The notes under the pieces: model-generated
Told to the model about the DNA's origin: nothing
Databases searched by the model: none
The model's input: only the letters and a program-made list of their open reading frames with translations
Origin: Devosia sp. 66-14
GTDB lineage: Bacteria; Pseudomonadota; Alphaproteobacteria; Rhizobiales; Devosiaceae
Direction: 5' to 3'
Assembly (NCBI GenBank): GCA_001899085.1
Contig: MKVB01000002.1
Span: 313,208-376,909, forward strand
Length of the DNA stretch: 63,702 nucleotides
Made by a program: the position numbers and the translations under genes
Part shown: positions 36,951 to 41,731 of the stretch, one piece after another
How the letters are laid out: each line of letters begins with the position of its first letter
Numbering within the stretch: the stretch's first letter is position 1

Positions 36951-37646
36951 TCAGGCGGCCCGGTCGGCCAGTTCGGCGAGGTAGCCGCGCCAGGGATCGG
37001 AGGCAATGAAGGTCCAATCCGGGGCCGGTCCGCGACCCGGCGGCAGGGCTTTCAACCGTTCGACCAGCAGCAGCGCGTCGGCGGTCTTGGCGCGGACGCG
37101 CGCGGCGCGATAGCGGTCGGCGAAGGCCGGCGGCAATCCGGCTTCGGCGACGATCGCCTCGACGGTGCGATCGGCGAAGTAGATCGACTGCGCCGCCAGC
37201 CGCAGCGCGATCGCTTCGGCTGCCGTTATGTCCATCGCAGCCACCGTCGCCTCGACATCGACCAGCGGCTCGCTCAGCGGCATGAAATCCAGTTCGGCGG
37301 GGGCGTGAGCAAGGCAGACATCGGCATCGGCGCTGCGGGCGCCGCTGACATAGCTCTGGGCGATCGGGCCGATGGCCTGCATGCCGAAGGCGGCGCACTC
37401 GCCGGCGCGCAAGGCGCCGATCGAGGCGGCGCCAAGCACCGGGATGCCCTGCTCGAGGGCATGGAGGATTTCCTTGTGCCAGACCGAGGGCACGAAGCCG
37501 AACACGCCGTCGACCAGCCCGATGGCGTCGGCGCCGTCGCGCACGGCGGCGTGGAGGTCGCCCTGCCGCGCCGGCGGCCGCACCTCGAGGCCGCTCCGAT
37601 CATAGGGCTGGCCGGACAGCGAGGGGCCGACGAACAGGACTTTCAC
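36951..37646 (-). CDS. TfuA-like protein (YcaO partner)
   Basis: 231 residues from a GTG at 37646, overlapping the ycaO stop by four bases. The TfuA core is clear: FVGPSLSG at the N-terminus, PPARQGDLHAAVRDGADAIG, LVDGVFGFVPSVWHKEILHA (residues 44-63) and LGAASIGALRAGECAAFGM. TfuA was first found in the trifolitoxin cluster, and in YcaO-TfuA pairs it assists backbone thioamide formation, probably by recruiting or activating the sulfur donor. It is the last gene of a four-gene operon. Confidence 0.88.
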   Translation of the reverse strand: MKVLFVGPSLSGQPYDRSGLEVRPPARQGDLHAAVRDGADAIGLVDGVFGFVPSVWHKEILHALEQGIPVLGAASIGALRAGECAAFGMQAIGPIAQSYVSGARSADADVCLAHAPAELDFMPLSEPLVDVEATVAAMDITAAEAIALRLAAQSIYFADRTVEAIVAEAGLPPAFADRYRAARVRAKTADALLLVERLKALPPGRGPAPDWTFIASDPWRGYLAELADRAA

Positions 37647-38848
37647 AGGAACCCCAGCATGGCGGCGGTGGCGCGCGAACCCGGACGCCAGTTGAGATTG
37701 GTGAGCCGGTCTTCGAGCCCGGGCACGAAGACGCGCGCCACCTCGATACCGAACTGCGCGCCACCGAGCGGAACGGCGACGATGCGCTCGAGGCCGACCC
37801 GGGCGAGCCCCGCTTGCAGCGCCGCGATCAGTTCGCTCTCGGCGGTCCCGGCGGGCAGGCCGAGCGGGGCCGGGCGGGTGGCGGGCACCGCCTCGGTCAG
37901 CACGGCGATGCTGCGGCCGAGTTGCTGGTCGTATTCGCCGGCGATGATATCGTCGCGCGCGCCGGCAATATTGGTGATCCGGGTCTGCGCCGCCTCGACG
38001 ATGGCGCGCCGGGCCGCTACCGCGGCGATCGGGTGGCAGCCGGCTCCGGTCGCCACATCGAAATGCCGGTCGGCGCCATCGGCCGGAAACAGCGCGGCGT
38101 AGACCACCGGGATGCCGATATTGCTCGTCTGGTCGAACAGCCGCAGCTGAAAGCCGGCGCGGGCGATCCGCGCGGCGAGCGCATCGATGCCGGCATCGCC
38201 GAAGGCTGAGGGGGCAACGGCCGTGCCCTGCGCTGCGGCGTCGGATTTGTAGCTCCACAGGCAGACCGAGTCGCGCTCGACCAGCTCGCAAAGGCCGTGC
38301 AGCAGGGCGCCGGAGAGTTCGACACCGGCGGCGACGCCGTTGCTGGACTGCGACAGGCCGTTGAGGTCGCGCGGTGGCGTGCCGAGCACCACCGCATCAT
38401 ACGGCACCAGCACCGGCGCGCCGGTCGCCAGCGCAAAGCCCTCGACCCAGCGGATCGGGGTTGTTGCATCGAGCGAGGCGCCGCGTGGCAAGAGCGGCGT
38501 GGGGTCGAGCCAGTCGTCGCCCGCGGCACGCAGGTCGGCAAGGCTGAGGGTGCGCTGCGGCGTCTGGGGCGCCTCGGCGACTGCATACTCGGCCGCCTCC
38601 ATCACCGCCGAGATCTGCGCCGAAATGTCGTCCACGCCTTTGCCCTGGTGGCTGGCGAGGGTCGCCGAATTCGGCCGCACCGCCGCGTAGCAGGGGATGC
38701 CGATGCGATCGAGCCCGGTCTGGTTGGCCAGCCGGGTGATGCCAAGGGCGCCGAAGTGCAACGACAAATCCCGCAGCAGGGCCGCGGGATTGCGAGGGCC
38801 GCCCGGCGCCTTGACGGCTGCCGGGCGGAGCTGGGCTCCGAAATGCAA
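37643..38848 (-). CDS. YcaO-domain peptide-modifying cyclodehydratase/thioamidase
   Basis: 401 residues from a TTG at 38848, three bases after the stop of the 72-residue gene. ATP- and Mg2+-binding residues of the YcaO fold are intact: ASHQGKG (65-71), Sx3ExxE as S80, E84 and E87, SNGVAAGVE (169-177), ExxER as E188, E191 and R192, and EAAQTRITNIAGARDD (285-300). These enzymes phosphorylate a peptide backbone carbonyl to form azolines or, with TfuA, thioamides. It does not end in the PxPxP tail common in azoline cyclodehydratases, which fits the TfuA-type class. No separate E1-like or dehydrogenase gene is adjacent. Confidence 0.9.
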   Translation of the reverse strand: MHFGAQLRPAAVKAPGGPRNPAALLRDLSLHFGALGITRLANQTGLDRIGIPCYAAVRPNSATLASHQGKGVDDISAQISAVMEAAEYAVAEAPQTPQRTLSLADLRAAGDDWLDPTPLLPRGASLDATTPIRWVEGFALATGAPVLVPYDAVVLGTPPRDLNGLSQSSNGVAAGVELSGALLHGLCELVERDSVCLWSYKSDAAAQGTAVAPSAFGDAGIDALAARIARAGFQLRLFDQTSNIGIPVVYAALFPADGADRHFDVATGAGCHPIAAVAARRAIVEAAQTRITNIAGARDDIIAGEYDQQLGRSIAVLTEAVPATRPAPLGLPAGTAESELIAALQAGLARVGLERIVAVPLGGAQFGIEVARVFVPGLEDRLTNLNWRPGSRATAAMLGFL

Positions 38849-38851
38849 GAC

Positions 38852-39070
38852 TTACTTGGAGGTGTAGAACCAGGCGGCGCTGCCGTCCGCGCGGTTGCCG
38901 GCGGCCACGGCGATGTTGATGCCGTCGACGAGCGCGTCGCCCGACTGCAATGCCGAGCGAACCTCGGCGGGGACCACGGTTGCCTGATCAACGGGAGTCA
39001 CAGTCATCAGCTGGGTGTCGACAACCAGCAACTGCTCAGAGTCTTTCTGTCCGATGATAACGTAACGCAT
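38852..39070 (-). CDS. 72-residue peptide in the YcaO-TfuA operon (candidate substrate)
   Basis: Preceded by AAGGAG at ideal spacing and followed three bases later by ycaO, so expression is assured if the operon is transcribed. The product starts MRYVIIGQKDSEQLLVVDTQ and ends NRADGSAAWFYTSK. It contains no cysteine; Ser/Thr are few (S11, T19, T23, T25, T31, S39, S43, S64, T70, S71). There is no signal peptide and no recognisable leader family. Its position suggests a RiPP precursor, with the C-terminal Gly/aromatic segment as a possible core, but it could equally be an accessory protein. Confidence 0.7.
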   Translation of the reverse strand: MRYVIIGQKDSEQLLVVDTQLMTVTPVDQATVVPAEVRSALQSGDALVDGINIAVAAGNRADGSAAWFYTSK

Positions 39071-39089
39071 AAGTACATCTCCTTGCGGC

Positions 39090-41051
39090 CTACTTGAAAC
39101 CGGCCTTGTGCAATGCGTCTATATACAGATCGACATCAGAGGGATCGCGCTGCGGCACTCGGGATAGCCAACGAGCGGTTGTAAAATCCGGTTGCAATCT
39201 AAGTGCTTGCAACCGATAGCGCCGGGCCAGCTCCATCTGGCCGGCCATGGCCGCGGCGGCGGCCATCAGGCGGTAAGCCGGTTCGGGGTTGCGCATCTGG
39301 CTCAGATTGGCCAGCGCTTCCTCGAAACGCCCGCGGAAGAAGTTGATGCCGCCCAGCGTCCACAGGTACTCGTCCGGCGGAATGGGGTTGAGCCGCATGG
39401 CGGCGGAGATCTTTTCCTGCGCCTCGCGGTGGTTGGAATTGTGGGCCAGGGTGTCGGCGAAATCGGCCAGGATGTCGGCATGGTTGGGGGCCAGTTCGGC
39501 AGCGGTCGACATGTGGACAAGCGCCTGGTCGAGATCGCGGTCGAACAGCGCCACGCGGCCCAGTTCGCGATAGGCGGTGCCGTCATTGGGGTCGATCGAG
39601 ACGGCGCGCTCGGCGTGCAGTTTCGCCTTGTCGAGCAGCGCCTTGTCCGACCCTGACCGGAGCACCCATTCCACCACGTAGGAGCGGGCAAGCGCGCTCT
39701 CGATGGTGGCCTGTTCCGGCTCGATGTCGCGGGCAATGCGCAGCGATTTGCGGCCGCGGCGGATCTTGGGCAGATCGAACGTCCTGAGGTTCTGGCGGCC
39801 GGCCAGGTAGTGCGAATAGGCATTGGCGTCGCGCAGCGTGCGCTCGCGCTGCAATTCCGCCGTCTCGATGGATTCGGCGAGGGCGCGGGCGACACCATTG
39901 GTGAAGTCCCAGTAGCGCTCCGGCGCGGTCAGCGCCGAGAAGGCGAACTTGTCGGCCCAGACGATCTCGCGCCCGGCGGCCCGCACCAGGCGAATGGCGA
40001 GCGACAGCCCATCGGTGGCAAAATGCGGCGCGATACGGCTCTCGACCGCATAATCGATCTGATGCGCCCGCACTTCGTCGAGCGCAGTGAACGGGTCGAG
40101 CTGCCAGGCGGTGTGCGGCGCGATCACCGACACCGATTTCAGCCGCGACAGCCCGATGGTCACATCCTCGACCAGCGCCGGCGCCAGATGCTTGGGCACG
40201 CTGGCCTGCTTGAAATCCTGCAGCGGCGGCAGCAGCACGACGCGCGGCACGAAGCTCAACCGCGCCCGATCCTCATCGGCAAGCGGGCGGCGCTGATCGG
40301 CGGTCCGCGGCTGCGCCGGCGTGGTGGCTTCGCTTTCCTGCTCGAACAGGTCGGAGGTTTCCGTTGCCGGCTCCATGCCGAGGCCGTGCCGCAGCCGGTT
40401 GCGGAAGGCGGCGAAGGCGGCCCGGGCGCCGCTTTCGTTGTTCTCCGAGCGGAACAATTCGATGGTGGCGCGGCACACCACGTCGGAATAGGGCAGGCGC
40501 TCGGCCAGGCGGAACAGCGCCGAGTGGGCGCCGCGGCCGCCGATGCGCAGGGCAGCCTCGGTCGCCTGGGTGGAGAACTGATTCTCGATGCGGGTGCGCT
40601 CCAGCGCCAGCCACTGGTCGAACTCGCTGCCGACGCCGGTGACGCCGGCCAGCAGTTCTCCACGATAGAGCGCGATCAGGCGTTCCAGTTCCGCCGCGTC
40701 TTCGGCAGTGCGGATCCGGCCGATCTCGCGCAGATCGAGAATGACGTCGCGATTGAGTTCGATCTCGGTAGCATCGGCGTCGAACAGGTCGAACCCGTAT
40801 CTACCTTCGAGTTCACGCGTATGCAGCAGGGTCTGACGCAGATTGGTCATCGCCTGTTCGGCAGTGCTGCTTTCCCAGGTGCGTTCTGCCAGTGCCGAGC
40901 GTCGGGCGCGATTCGAAAAGTCGAGATACAGCACCGCCGCCAGCGCATAGGCCTTCTGACGCAACTTTACTGCCGAACCATCCGCCAGGCGGAGGACCGG
41001 GGTCCCCAGGAGCTGCAGGGTGACCGTTTCACGCATAGAAGTGATCGGCAT
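39090..41051 (-). CDS. BTAD/SARP-like regulator with TPR region
   Basis: 653 residues; an internal ATG at 41036 is an alternative start. An N-terminal winged helix (TLQLLGTPVLRLADGSAVKL) and a BTAD helical domain (about residues 100-245, with LYRGELLAGVTGVGSEFDQW) resemble SARP-type activators. A central alpha/beta region (about 275-400) looks like the domain found in TPR-bearing adenylate-cyclase-like regulators. The C-terminal 250 residues are TPRs (SHYLAGRQNLRTFDLPKIRR, ELGRVALFDRDLDQALVHMS). It is the first gene of the operon ending in tfuA and probably controls it. Confidence 0.82.
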   Translation of the reverse strand: MPITSMRETVTLQLLGTPVLRLADGSAVKLRQKAYALAAVLYLDFSNRARRSALAERTWESSTAEQAMTNLRQTLLHTRELEGRYGFDLFDADATEIELNRDVILDLREIGRIRTAEDAAELERLIALYRGELLAGVTGVGSEFDQWLALERTRIENQFSTQATEAALRIGGRGAHSALFRLAERLPYSDVVCRATIELFRSENNESGARAAFAAFRNRLRHGLGMEPATETSDLFEQESEATTPAQPRTADQRRPLADEDRARLSFVPRVVLLPPLQDFKQASVPKHLAPALVEDVTIGLSRLKSVSVIAPHTAWQLDPFTALDEVRAHQIDYAVESRIAPHFATDGLSLAIRLVRAAGREIVWADKFAFSALTAPERYWDFTNGVARALAESIETAELQRERTLRDANAYSHYLAGRQNLRTFDLPKIRRGRKSLRIARDIEPEQATIESALARSYVVEWVLRSGSDKALLDKAKLHAERAVSIDPNDGTAYRELGRVALFDRDLDQALVHMSTAAELAPNHADILADFADTLAHNSNHREAQEKISAAMRLNPIPPDEYLWTLGGINFFRGRFEEALANLSQMRNPEPAYRLMAAAAAMAGQMELARRYRLQALRLQPDFTTARWLSRVPQRDPSDVDLYIDALHKAGFK

Positions 41052-41254
41052 TGCTCAATTGATCCGACGAAAGAGGTGGAAGTTTACTTGACGAAGTAAA
41101 GGGCAAAGCGTAGCCACGTAACGGCTAGATAACGCATCCAAGTAAGCTACCTGCGTGCGAAGCGCTAGCACAATAACTGCGAGGAGACGCGGCGGGTGGG
41201 CCGCAGTGTCCCGCATATAGGACCCGAAACCTAGGCAACAATATCGAGGGACGA

Positions 41255-41731
41255 ATGGAATCAGGAACATCGAACCTGGCTGCAGCAGCAATGGCAGACG
41301 CTAGGAGTTCCCAACTGATCGAACTGAGCGCCGACATCGTCAGCGCTTATGTGAGTCACAATGCGCTCAGCGCCAGCGACATTCCCAAGCTGATCGCGAC
41401 GGTTCATGCAACACTGAGCGGTCTCGGCGGCGTCATTGAACCCGAGGCAGTCGTCGAGCTGCGGCCGGCCGTGCCGGTGAAGAAATCGATCACGCCGGAA
41501 TACTTGATCTGTCTCGAAGACGGCAAGAAATTCAAGTCTCTGAAGCGTCATCTCAGAACCGAGTACGACATGTCGCCGGAAGAATACCGGGCGAAGTGGG
41601 GGTTGCCGGTCGACTATCCCATGGTTGCGCCGACCTATTCGGAAGCACGCTCGCGGCTCGCCAAGACCATCGGCCTCGGCCGCAAGCCGAAAGCGACTGC
41701 AGCTCGCGGTCGCACCAAGGTCGTTTCCTGA
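41255..41731 (+). CDS. MucR/Ros-family transcriptional regulator
   Basis: 158 residues. The Ros/MucR core is intact: LIELSADIVSAYVSHNALSA, then KKSITPEYLICLEDGKKFKS and LKRHLRTEYDMSPEEYRAKW, followed by GLPVDYPMVAPTYSEARS. The zinc-finger region has the single Cys/Asp arrangement usual for rhizobial MucR. Members regulate exopolysaccharide, motility and cell-cycle genes. It is divergent from the BTAD gene; a strong terminator follows. No direct link with the YcaO operon can be shown. Confidence 0.92.
   Translation: MESGTSNLAAAAMADARSSQLIELSADIVSAYVSHNALSASDIPKLIATVHATLSGLGGVIEPEAVVELRPAVPVKKSITPEYLICLEDGKKFKSLKRHLRTEYDMSPEEYRAKWGLPVDYPMVAPTYSEARSRLAKTIGLGRKPKATAARGRTKVVS

What the first reader, a model, noticed from the sequence alone, without database searches (positions are those of the whole stretch)
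36951..41051. Four-gene BTAD regulator / 72-residue peptide / YcaO / TfuA operon: candidate undescribed RiPP or protein-thioamidation system
Seen: four tightly packed leftward genes (gaps of 19 and 3 bases, then a 4-base overlap) ending in YcaO and TfuA proteins with intact signature residues. The 72-residue gene has a strong ribosome-binding site. Known: YcaO enzymes with TfuA partners install backbone thioamides, on peptides or on methyl-CoM reductase in archaea. Inference: the small protein, which lacks cysteine and matches no leader family I recognise, is the substrate or an accessory. A large BTAD/TPR regulator in front is unusual for proteobacterial RiPP loci. No transporter, protease, E1-like or dehydrogenase gene is adjacent, so the product may stay in the cell or the target may be a larger protein.
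Basis: partly seen in the sequence, partly recalled or inferred. Interest (0 to 1): 0.88.

Follow-up and report, generated by a model that had tools for sequence, protein, structure and literature searches.

The report
Multi-core thioamide peptide operon with regulator
A soil bacterium carries a four-gene operon that most likely makes a small sulfur-modified peptide; related operons in many root-associated bacteria encode the same leader followed by one to about eight copies of a short product sequence, and nearly always travel with the same kind of large regulator protein.

Summary
In detail: regulator, 72-residue gene, YcaO and TfuA lie tightly packed at 36951-41051. The 72-residue protein belongs to a leader family with no Pfam or NCBIfam model over cut-off. 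It occurs in 33 of 397 sampled genomes of the order; all 33 also carry TfuA, against 62 of 397 overall, and 29 of 34 matches lie 1.3-2.0 kb upstream of TfuA on the same strand. Eighteen of 75 distinct relatives carry internal repeats behind the leader. The window's last 22 residues match one such unit without gaps over 19 positions (0 of 5000 shuffles). So it is a RiPP precursor with one core; relatives are multi-core, like the thiovarsolin precursor. The regulator is not unusual: it precedes YcaO in 76 of 80 relatives, and its closest subfamily is largely confined to such loci. Other peptide types fill the same slot elsewhere, one of them in a second locus of this genome. Thioamidation is inferred from YcaO-TfuA. 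Novelty: a new, widespread family of TfuA-type RiPPs with a dedicated SARP/CadC-like regulator. What the product does is unknown.

The parts
39090..41051 (-). Regulator, 653 aa: SARP-type winged helix (about 1-105) + BTAD (106-240) + linker + TolB-N/CadC-like domain (about 268-375) + TPRs (377-650)
   Evidence: Pfam; AfsR/EmbR sequence match; AlphaFold2 model mean pLDDT 85; Foldseek hits CadC 3ly7 (rank 26) and AfsR 8hvr (rank 42) among many TPR proteins; domain borders read off the model are mine
38852..39070 (-). Precursor peptide gene, 72 aa
   Evidence: Leader-family profile; ribosome-binding site; pN/pS 0.22
38921..39070 (-). Leader part, residues 1-50; residues 1-43 predicted as three strands and two short helices
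   Evidence: pLDDT blocks 72, 79, 79, 64, then 50-54; conserved across genera; pN/pS 0.15. The boundary at 50 is approximate and mine
38855..38920 (-). Single core unit, residues 51-72 (INIAVAAGNRADGSAAWFYTSK)
   Evidence: 19-position ungapped match to the 20-residue repeat unit of L060, 0 of 5000 shuffles; low-confidence part of the model
39079..39084 (-). AAGGAG ribosome-binding site of the precursor gene
   Evidence: Sequence
37643..38848 (-). YcaO, 401 aa, predicted thioamide-forming
   Evidence: Pfam 5e-63; best sequence match among solved structures MJ1094 6pe3, 1e-22; conserved residues
36951..37646 (-). TfuA, 231 aa, predicted sulfide-delivering partner
   Evidence: Pfam 1.3e-32; solved TfuA 6xp8, 9.3e-23; S75 and K187 conserved
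41083..41100 (.). Palindrome TTTACTT-N4-AAGTAAA upstream of the regulator's ATG, candidate operator
   Evidence: Only match in the window, 0 in 100 shuffles; matched in 4 of 191 loci, the four Devosia relatives aligned (L032, L033, L035, L036); the Devosia locus L057 has none

Best explanation
The operon encodes a thioamidated RiPP. The 72-residue protein is the precursor: about 50 N-terminal residues form a small leader, and the last ~22 residues are one core unit. YcaO, with ATP, and TfuA, as sulfide donor (probably from a ThiS-type thiocarboxylate), replace backbone oxygen by sulfur in the core. General cellular peptidases may then free the modified piece, as proposed for thiovarsolins. Relatives carry the same leader with one to about eight cores. 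The SARP/BTAD protein with a CadC-like sensor half is the pathway's dedicated regulator. Shown here: gene order, families, leader-core anatomy, repeats, co-occurrence, selection. Inferred: the thioamide chemistry, release, and the regulator's role.
For: Leader family in 33 of 397 order genomes, all TfuA-positive (62 of 397 are); 29 of 34 matches 1309-1956 bp upstream of TfuA, same strand. In 80 genome-contig loci (the best 80 of 347 relatives): TfuA adjacent downstream 78, regulator upstream 76 (3 of them only its C-terminal half), leader-family peptide in the slot 39, of which 15 have two. Internal repeats in 18 of 75 distinct precursors, several of the 18 near-copies from Phyllobacterium; 0 of 1500 shuffles. 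Tandem arrays found by a second method in L060, L059 and L062. Window C-terminus matches the L060 repeat unit. Leader more constrained than core, pN/pS 0.15 against 0.49. Peptide type follows the YcaO tree, 2 changes against a shuffled mean of 26.5. YcaO and TfuA residues intact. One ThiS-family gene in the genome. Precedent: precursor + YcaO + TfuA suffice for thiovarsolin B (passages of PMC6511847).
Against: No product or mass is known. The window's copy has a single core and no repeat. Three leader matches in 2 genomes (G681, G311) lie on contigs without TfuA and away from contig ends, and the longer stretches fetched (L178, L179) show regulator and peptide but no YcaO. NCBIfam's thioamidation models score below cut-off (YcaO 175.1 of 365, TfuA 132.3 of 235.2), though they are set for the archaeal MCR enzymes. 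No leader-binding (RRE) protein was recognised; none was searched for by a dedicated model. The match to repeat units of L061 and L062 is weaker (143 and 233 of 5000 shuffles) and to the two Phyllobacterium units not significant (1649 and 2733 of 5000). In the tree test I merged the KFR-, LFR- and PSRKFF-type peptides into one class and set two labels (L111, L034) by hand; deep branches are weak and near-copies inflate it.
Confidence: 0.8

Rival explanations
1. YcaO-TfuA modify a larger cellular protein, and the 72-residue protein only helps (leader-binding or chaperone).
For: YcaO can act on proteins: MCR in archaea, uL16 in Pseudomonadota (PMC5589413 search listing; PMC13063428 abstract start and passages). 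The leader part is predicted to fold.
Against: Relatives end in repeats with changing sequence, as expected of a substrate, not a helper. No MCR gene found in this genome. [quoted passage not shown]
Confidence: 0.07
2. The YcaO makes azolines or another amide-derived group rather than a thioamide.
For: Cores hold Ser and Thr. Many YcaOs of known RiPPs make azol(in)es (recalled).
Against: Adjacent TfuA with S75/K187 intact. No cysteine in the peptide. No E1-like or dehydrogenase gene among the four neighbouring ORFs scanned. Best solved match is MJ1094.
Confidence: 0.06
3. The small protein is a regulatory partner of the BTAD protein (an anti-activator or co-inducer), and the YcaO substrate is encoded elsewhere.
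For: Regulator and peptide stay together when YcaO is absent (L178, L179) or when the unit lies behind TfuA (L051).
Against: Core repeats; unrelated peptide types in the same slot; peptide type tracks the YcaO tree.
Confidence: 0.05

Closest known systems
Thiovarsolin cluster varAYT of Streptomyces varsoviensis (PMC6511847; passages read)
   Same: YcaO and TfuA with a precursor family that runs from non-repeating to five repeats behind an aligned leader; the minimal set precursor + YcaO + TfuA suffices for thiovarsolin B; no specific protease in the cluster
   Different: Here no APR core, a different set of neighbours (no heme oxygenase, ligase or amidinotransferase among the four ORFs scanned), a SARP/TPR regulator, and a home in Hyphomicrobiales. 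VarA was not compared by sequence
TfuA-related clusters mined in Proteobacteria (PMC8120280; parts 1-4 of 6 read)
   Same: That survey counted 2,326 unique clusters, over 500 in Rhizobium, and 797 precursor clusters; loci like this one are probably among them
   Different: Its main text does not hold the words BTAD, tetratricopeptide, repeat, Devosia or Phyllobacterium; its supplements could not be read here
Archaeal McrA thioamidation pair (TIGR03266, NF033432)
   Same: Best-scoring NCBIfam models for both enzymes
   Different: Scores below cut-off; no MCR found in the genome
SARP regulators AfsR/EmbR and the CadC/HilA sensor half
   Same: N-terminal part matches AfsR and EmbR; C-terminal part resembles CadC and weakly HilA/EilA (29 bits)
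   Different: The combination, and its tie to YcaO-TfuA loci
Phazolicin and trifolitoxin of rhizobia (PMC6783444, PMC9670871; search listings)
   Same: RiPPs of rhizobia; the listing of PMC6783444 places phazolicin among YcaO papers
   Different: Described there as azol(in)e-modified peptides, not thioamides; sequences not compared here

Membership tests
TfuA-type thioamidated RiPP cluster | Adjacent YcaO and TfuA genes | tested here: met
TfuA-type thioamidated RiPP cluster | YcaO core residues and TfuA Ser/Lys intact | tested here: met
   (84 YcaO rows, 79 TfuA rows); functional meaning of the YcaO residues recalled
TfuA-type thioamidated RiPP cluster | Precursor with leader and core encoded in the cluster | tested here: met
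   Comparative:
TfuA-type thioamidated RiPP cluster | Thioamide in the product | not testable with these tools
   Needs mass spectrometry
Thiovarsolin family | Repeating core precursor beside YcaO-TfuA | tested here: inconclusive
   18 of 75 relatives yes, window copy has one core
Thiovarsolin family | APR/GPR core tripeptide | tested here: not met
   Sequence of the 72-residue protein
Thiovarsolin family | Leader homologous to VarA | not tested
   VarA sequence not at hand
McrA-glycine thioamidation | Scores over the curated cut-offs | tested here: not met
   175.1 of 365 and 132.3 of 235.2 bits
McrA-glycine thioamidation | MCR substrate in the genome | tested here: not met
   PF02745 absent, two methanogen controls positive
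SARP-type regulator | Winged helix followed by BTAD | tested here: met

The most novel reading that the evidence does not exclude
The SARP/CadC-like TPR protein is the receptor, or leader-binding partner, of its own peptide, so the operon is an intracellular peptide-signalling or self-tuning circuit with a thioamidated ligand, in Gram-negative bacteria. The pair stays together when the rest is elsewhere or missing (L051, L178, L179). In the 4 second-type Devosia loci seen (L025, L039, L040, L042) the protein has lost its DNA-binding half but kept the sensor/TPR half beside the peptide. Three genomes array three regulators, two YcaOs and one TfuA.
Probability: 0.25. Interest if true: 0.85.

Novelty: new variant of a known kind. 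Interest (0 to 1): 0.65.

Why it matters
As of 2021 the thioamidated RiPPs known to be made by a TfuA-YcaO pair all came from Actinobacteria (PMC8120280). Here is a widespread Hyphomicrobiales family with a recognisable leader, natural multi-core variants and three parts (precursor, YcaO, TfuA) that can be expressed together in E. coli. That gives a direct test of whether Gram-negative TfuA clusters make thioamide peptides, a ready series of leader-plus-repeat substrates, and a dedicated regulator whose sensor half may bind the peptide. Its home in root-associated genera makes a role between bacteria, or with plants, worth testing.

Tried and rejected
Pfam's weak hits for the small family (HCV_NS5a_1b in 2 of 22 members, 17.3 of 27 bits for the window's; V_ATPase_prox 0.00051 in 1 of 22) were dismissed. 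Foldseek on the small model gave nothing at E <= 0.001, and the model is low-confidence. A PDB profile search with the small family gave three hits, best 0.27. Clustering of flanking ORFs to find a shared transporter or protease gave mixed families, partly antisense ORFs, with no clear candidate; I did not run family models on them. Tandem repeats in the window's operon: none. Regulator profile as a marker: 129 of 297 genomes match at 1e-30, so only the top group (480 bits or more) is specific. One search was given the best 60 of a longer, cut list of regulator matches and 48 of the 75 TfuA places (those I judged to belong to the genomes concerned); TfuA was searched in the 397-genome sample, regulators in the 297-genome sample, and I could not check that every genome is in both. 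Among matches below 480 bits four lie 2.9-3.9 kb from a TfuA on the opposite strand and one 5.5 kb behind one, so a looser, differently arranged association exists. The class sample gave the leader in the own genome only (1 of 289). No paper describing this family turned up; the library lacks most subscription papers, so absence from print is not shown.
Full report
What is there. Four minus-strand genes at 36951-41051 are as described: a 653-residue regulator, a 72-residue gene, YcaO and TfuA, with gaps of 19 and 3 bases and a 4-base overlap. Pfam names the three large ones (BTAD and TPR, YcaO, TfuA) and nothing over cut-off for the small one. YcaO starts with TTG and TfuA with GTG. The genome is a 5.7 Mb assembly in 13 contigs, and the nearest named relatives of the YcaO are Devosia.

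The small protein has relatives, and they sit in the same place. A search with the 72 residues alone found two distant relatives among 297 genomes of the order, besides the window's own, and both lie between the same kind of regulator and YcaO. One scan of the genome collection with a four-row YcaO alignment gave 347 relatives, of which the best 80 were kept. In these 80, TfuA follows YcaO in 78; in L077 it lies upstream on the other strand and L109 ends too soon. The regulator precedes YcaO in 76 (in 3 of them, L039, L040 and L042, only its C-terminal half) and lies behind TfuA in one (L051). Of the remaining three, L034 is a contig edge, and in L041 and L078 none was found. The slot in front of YcaO holds a leader-family peptide in 39 loci (24 with one, 15 with two), and 2 more loci have one elsewhere (L041, L051). 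It holds a short peptide ending in HALKFR-like residues in 31 and one with IPSRKFF in 3. Of the other five, L038 and L043 have peptides of their own kind and L111 a 51-residue peptide ending in LFR. L034 is cut off, though the window peptide's last 19 residues match its edge. L078 shows nothing clear.

Leader and core. An alignment of 22 members shows a shared N-terminal pattern (M-A-K-x-x-I-x-G...L-W-L-V-D...G-T-V) and a divergent C-terminus. AlphaFold2 gives three strands and two short helices for residues 1-43 at modest confidence, and little confidence after that. Among five Devosia sequences pN/pS is 0.22 overall, 0.15 in residues 1-50 and 0.49 in 51-72. In 18 of 75 distinct precursors the C-terminus holds an internal repeat; shuffled sequences gave 0 of 1500; several of the 18 are near-copies. 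Examples are a 20-residue unit about five to six times in L060, a 13-residue unit about seven times in L059, RSDAASHHYF units in L062, a 14-residue GLFERSE unit in L134 and a 7-residue GGFFEAS unit in L135. The window's last 22 residues align without a gap over 19 positions to the L060 unit (0 of 5000 shuffles); four other units matched less well or not at all (143, 233, 1649 and 2733 of 5000). This identifies the window's C-terminus as a single core.

Co-occurrence. A profile of the family found 34 matches in 33 of 397 order genomes. TfuA occurs at 75 places in 62 of 397 (same handles, taken to be the same sample). All 33 are TfuA-positive; 29 of 34 matches have TfuA 1309-1956 bp downstream on the same strand, and these account for 29 of the 75 TfuA places. 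Of the other five, all on contigs without TfuA, two are at contig ends (G347, G581) and three, in G681 (two) and G311 (one), are not. Fetched stretches of those two genomes show regulator plus peptide and no YcaO nearby. The hypergeometric figure ignores kinship. By genus the counts are 13 of 142 for the peptide and 32 of 142 for TfuA. In a class-wide sample 0 of the 288 other genomes had the family (at least 3 of the 288 belong to the same order), although 16 of 289 have TfuA, own included.

Enzymes. YcaO's best match among solved structures is MJ1094 and TfuA's is 6xp8. Residues conserved over 84 YcaOs and 79 TfuAs are present save one in each, and S75 and K187 of TfuA are kept. A paper passage states that TfuA uses a Ser-Lys pair to release sulfide from ThiS-COSH for YcaO (PMC13185837). 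The genome has one ThiS-family match and no MCR match. In a YcaO tree of 84 rows, peptide type (45 leader-family, 36 FR-type, 3 unlabelled) needs 2 changes against a shuffled mean of 26.5. I merged the KFR, LFR and PSRKFF types for this; deep branches are weak and there are many near-copies.

Regulator. The model (mean pLDDT 85) shows a SARP winged helix with BTAD, then an alpha/beta domain and TPRs. Foldseek finds many TPR proteins, CadC's periplasmic domain (3ly7) and, for the first part, AfsR (8hvr). Of the 40 best profile matches in 297 order genomes (480 bits or more), 34 lie upstream of TfuA on the same strand within 10 kb; of the next 20, none does, though five of those lie within 6 kb of a TfuA in another arrangement. 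Of the six others of the top 40, two are contig ends, one sits on a 4.2 kb contig (L180), one is beside a peptide without YcaO (L179), one beside a YcaO without TfuA in 9 kb (L175) and one stands alone (L176). In four Devosia loci of the second type, one of them in this genome, only the C-terminal half was found. Three genomes of another family (G406, G435, G483) hold three regulators, two YcaOs and one TfuA, and peptides of 211-224 residues: AGVQSQ-type repeats in two, Q-rich PESQQAQQG-like repeats in the third (L172-L174). The leader profile did not match these, though their N-termini look alike by eye. A palindrome at 41083-41100 before the regulator is shared by the window and four Devosia relatives.

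Mechanism. The best reading is leader-guided thioamidation of the core by YcaO and TfuA, with release by general peptidases, by analogy with thiovarsolin, where precursor, YcaO and TfuA suffice (PMC6511847 passages). The regulator most likely controls the operon; its sensor half may bind the peptide. The chemistry, the site of the thioamide, release and biological role are not shown.

Known or new. The 2021 survey (PMC8120280, parts 1-4 of 6 read) counted over 500 Rhizobium TfuA clusters, so loci of this kind are probably listed there, but its main text does not hold the words BTAD, tetratricopeptide, repeat, Devosia or Phyllobacterium, and its supplements were not readable. Seven literature searches gave no description of the family. 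In two plasmid records the genes are annotated as BTAD regulator, hypothetical protein, YcaO-like, TfuA-like, hypothetical protein. I rate it a new variant of a known kind.

Noticed in passing
L025 (G000:C1:553000-569000), 4967 to about 8.4 kb: Second YcaO-TfuA locus in the same genome: sensor-half-only regulator, a 33-residue peptide with a strong ribosome-binding site (TTG start) ending in PSRKFFRQ, YcaO 46% identical to the window's, and TfuA.
   Followed up: partly
L029 (G000:C3:116639-117649 and around): Third YcaO of the genome lies in a 747-residue ORF that looks like a fused cyclodehydratase, followed by a dehydrogenase-like ORF; apparently a separate azol(in)e cluster (named by eye, no family search beyond YcaO).
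   Followed up: no
L064, L067, L071-L075, L081 and other loci, just behind TfuA: A fifth small gene (about 75-90 residues, helical look) follows TfuA in Rhizobium, Pleomorphomonas and Mesorhizobium types and was not seen in Devosia; a similar ORF follows a lone regulator in L180.
   Followed up: partly
L172, L173, L174: Arrays of three regulators, two YcaOs and one TfuA with repeat-bearing peptides of 211-224 residues whose N-termini resemble the leader by eye but are not matched by its profile.
   Followed up: partly
L178 (G681:C10) and L187 (G681:C33): Regulator and peptide lie on one contig without YcaO, while YcaO-TfuA with a regulator fragment lie on another; a transposase-like ORF (by eye) follows the peptide.
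   Followed up: partly
window 41255-41731: A divergent ROS/MucR-type regulator gene (Pfam 2.5e-49) shares the intergenic region with the operon; that region is strongly conserved in four Devosia relatives.
   Followed up: partly
plasmids collection: YcaO relatives of any kind occur on 298 of 72,556 plasmid records, 154 of them Rhizobium; 60 predicted conjugative and 54 mobilizable.
   Followed up: no
L175 (G483:C2:77000-86000): Regulator, a 152-residue peptide with cysteine and YcaO, with no TfuA in the 9 kb fetched.
   Followed up: no
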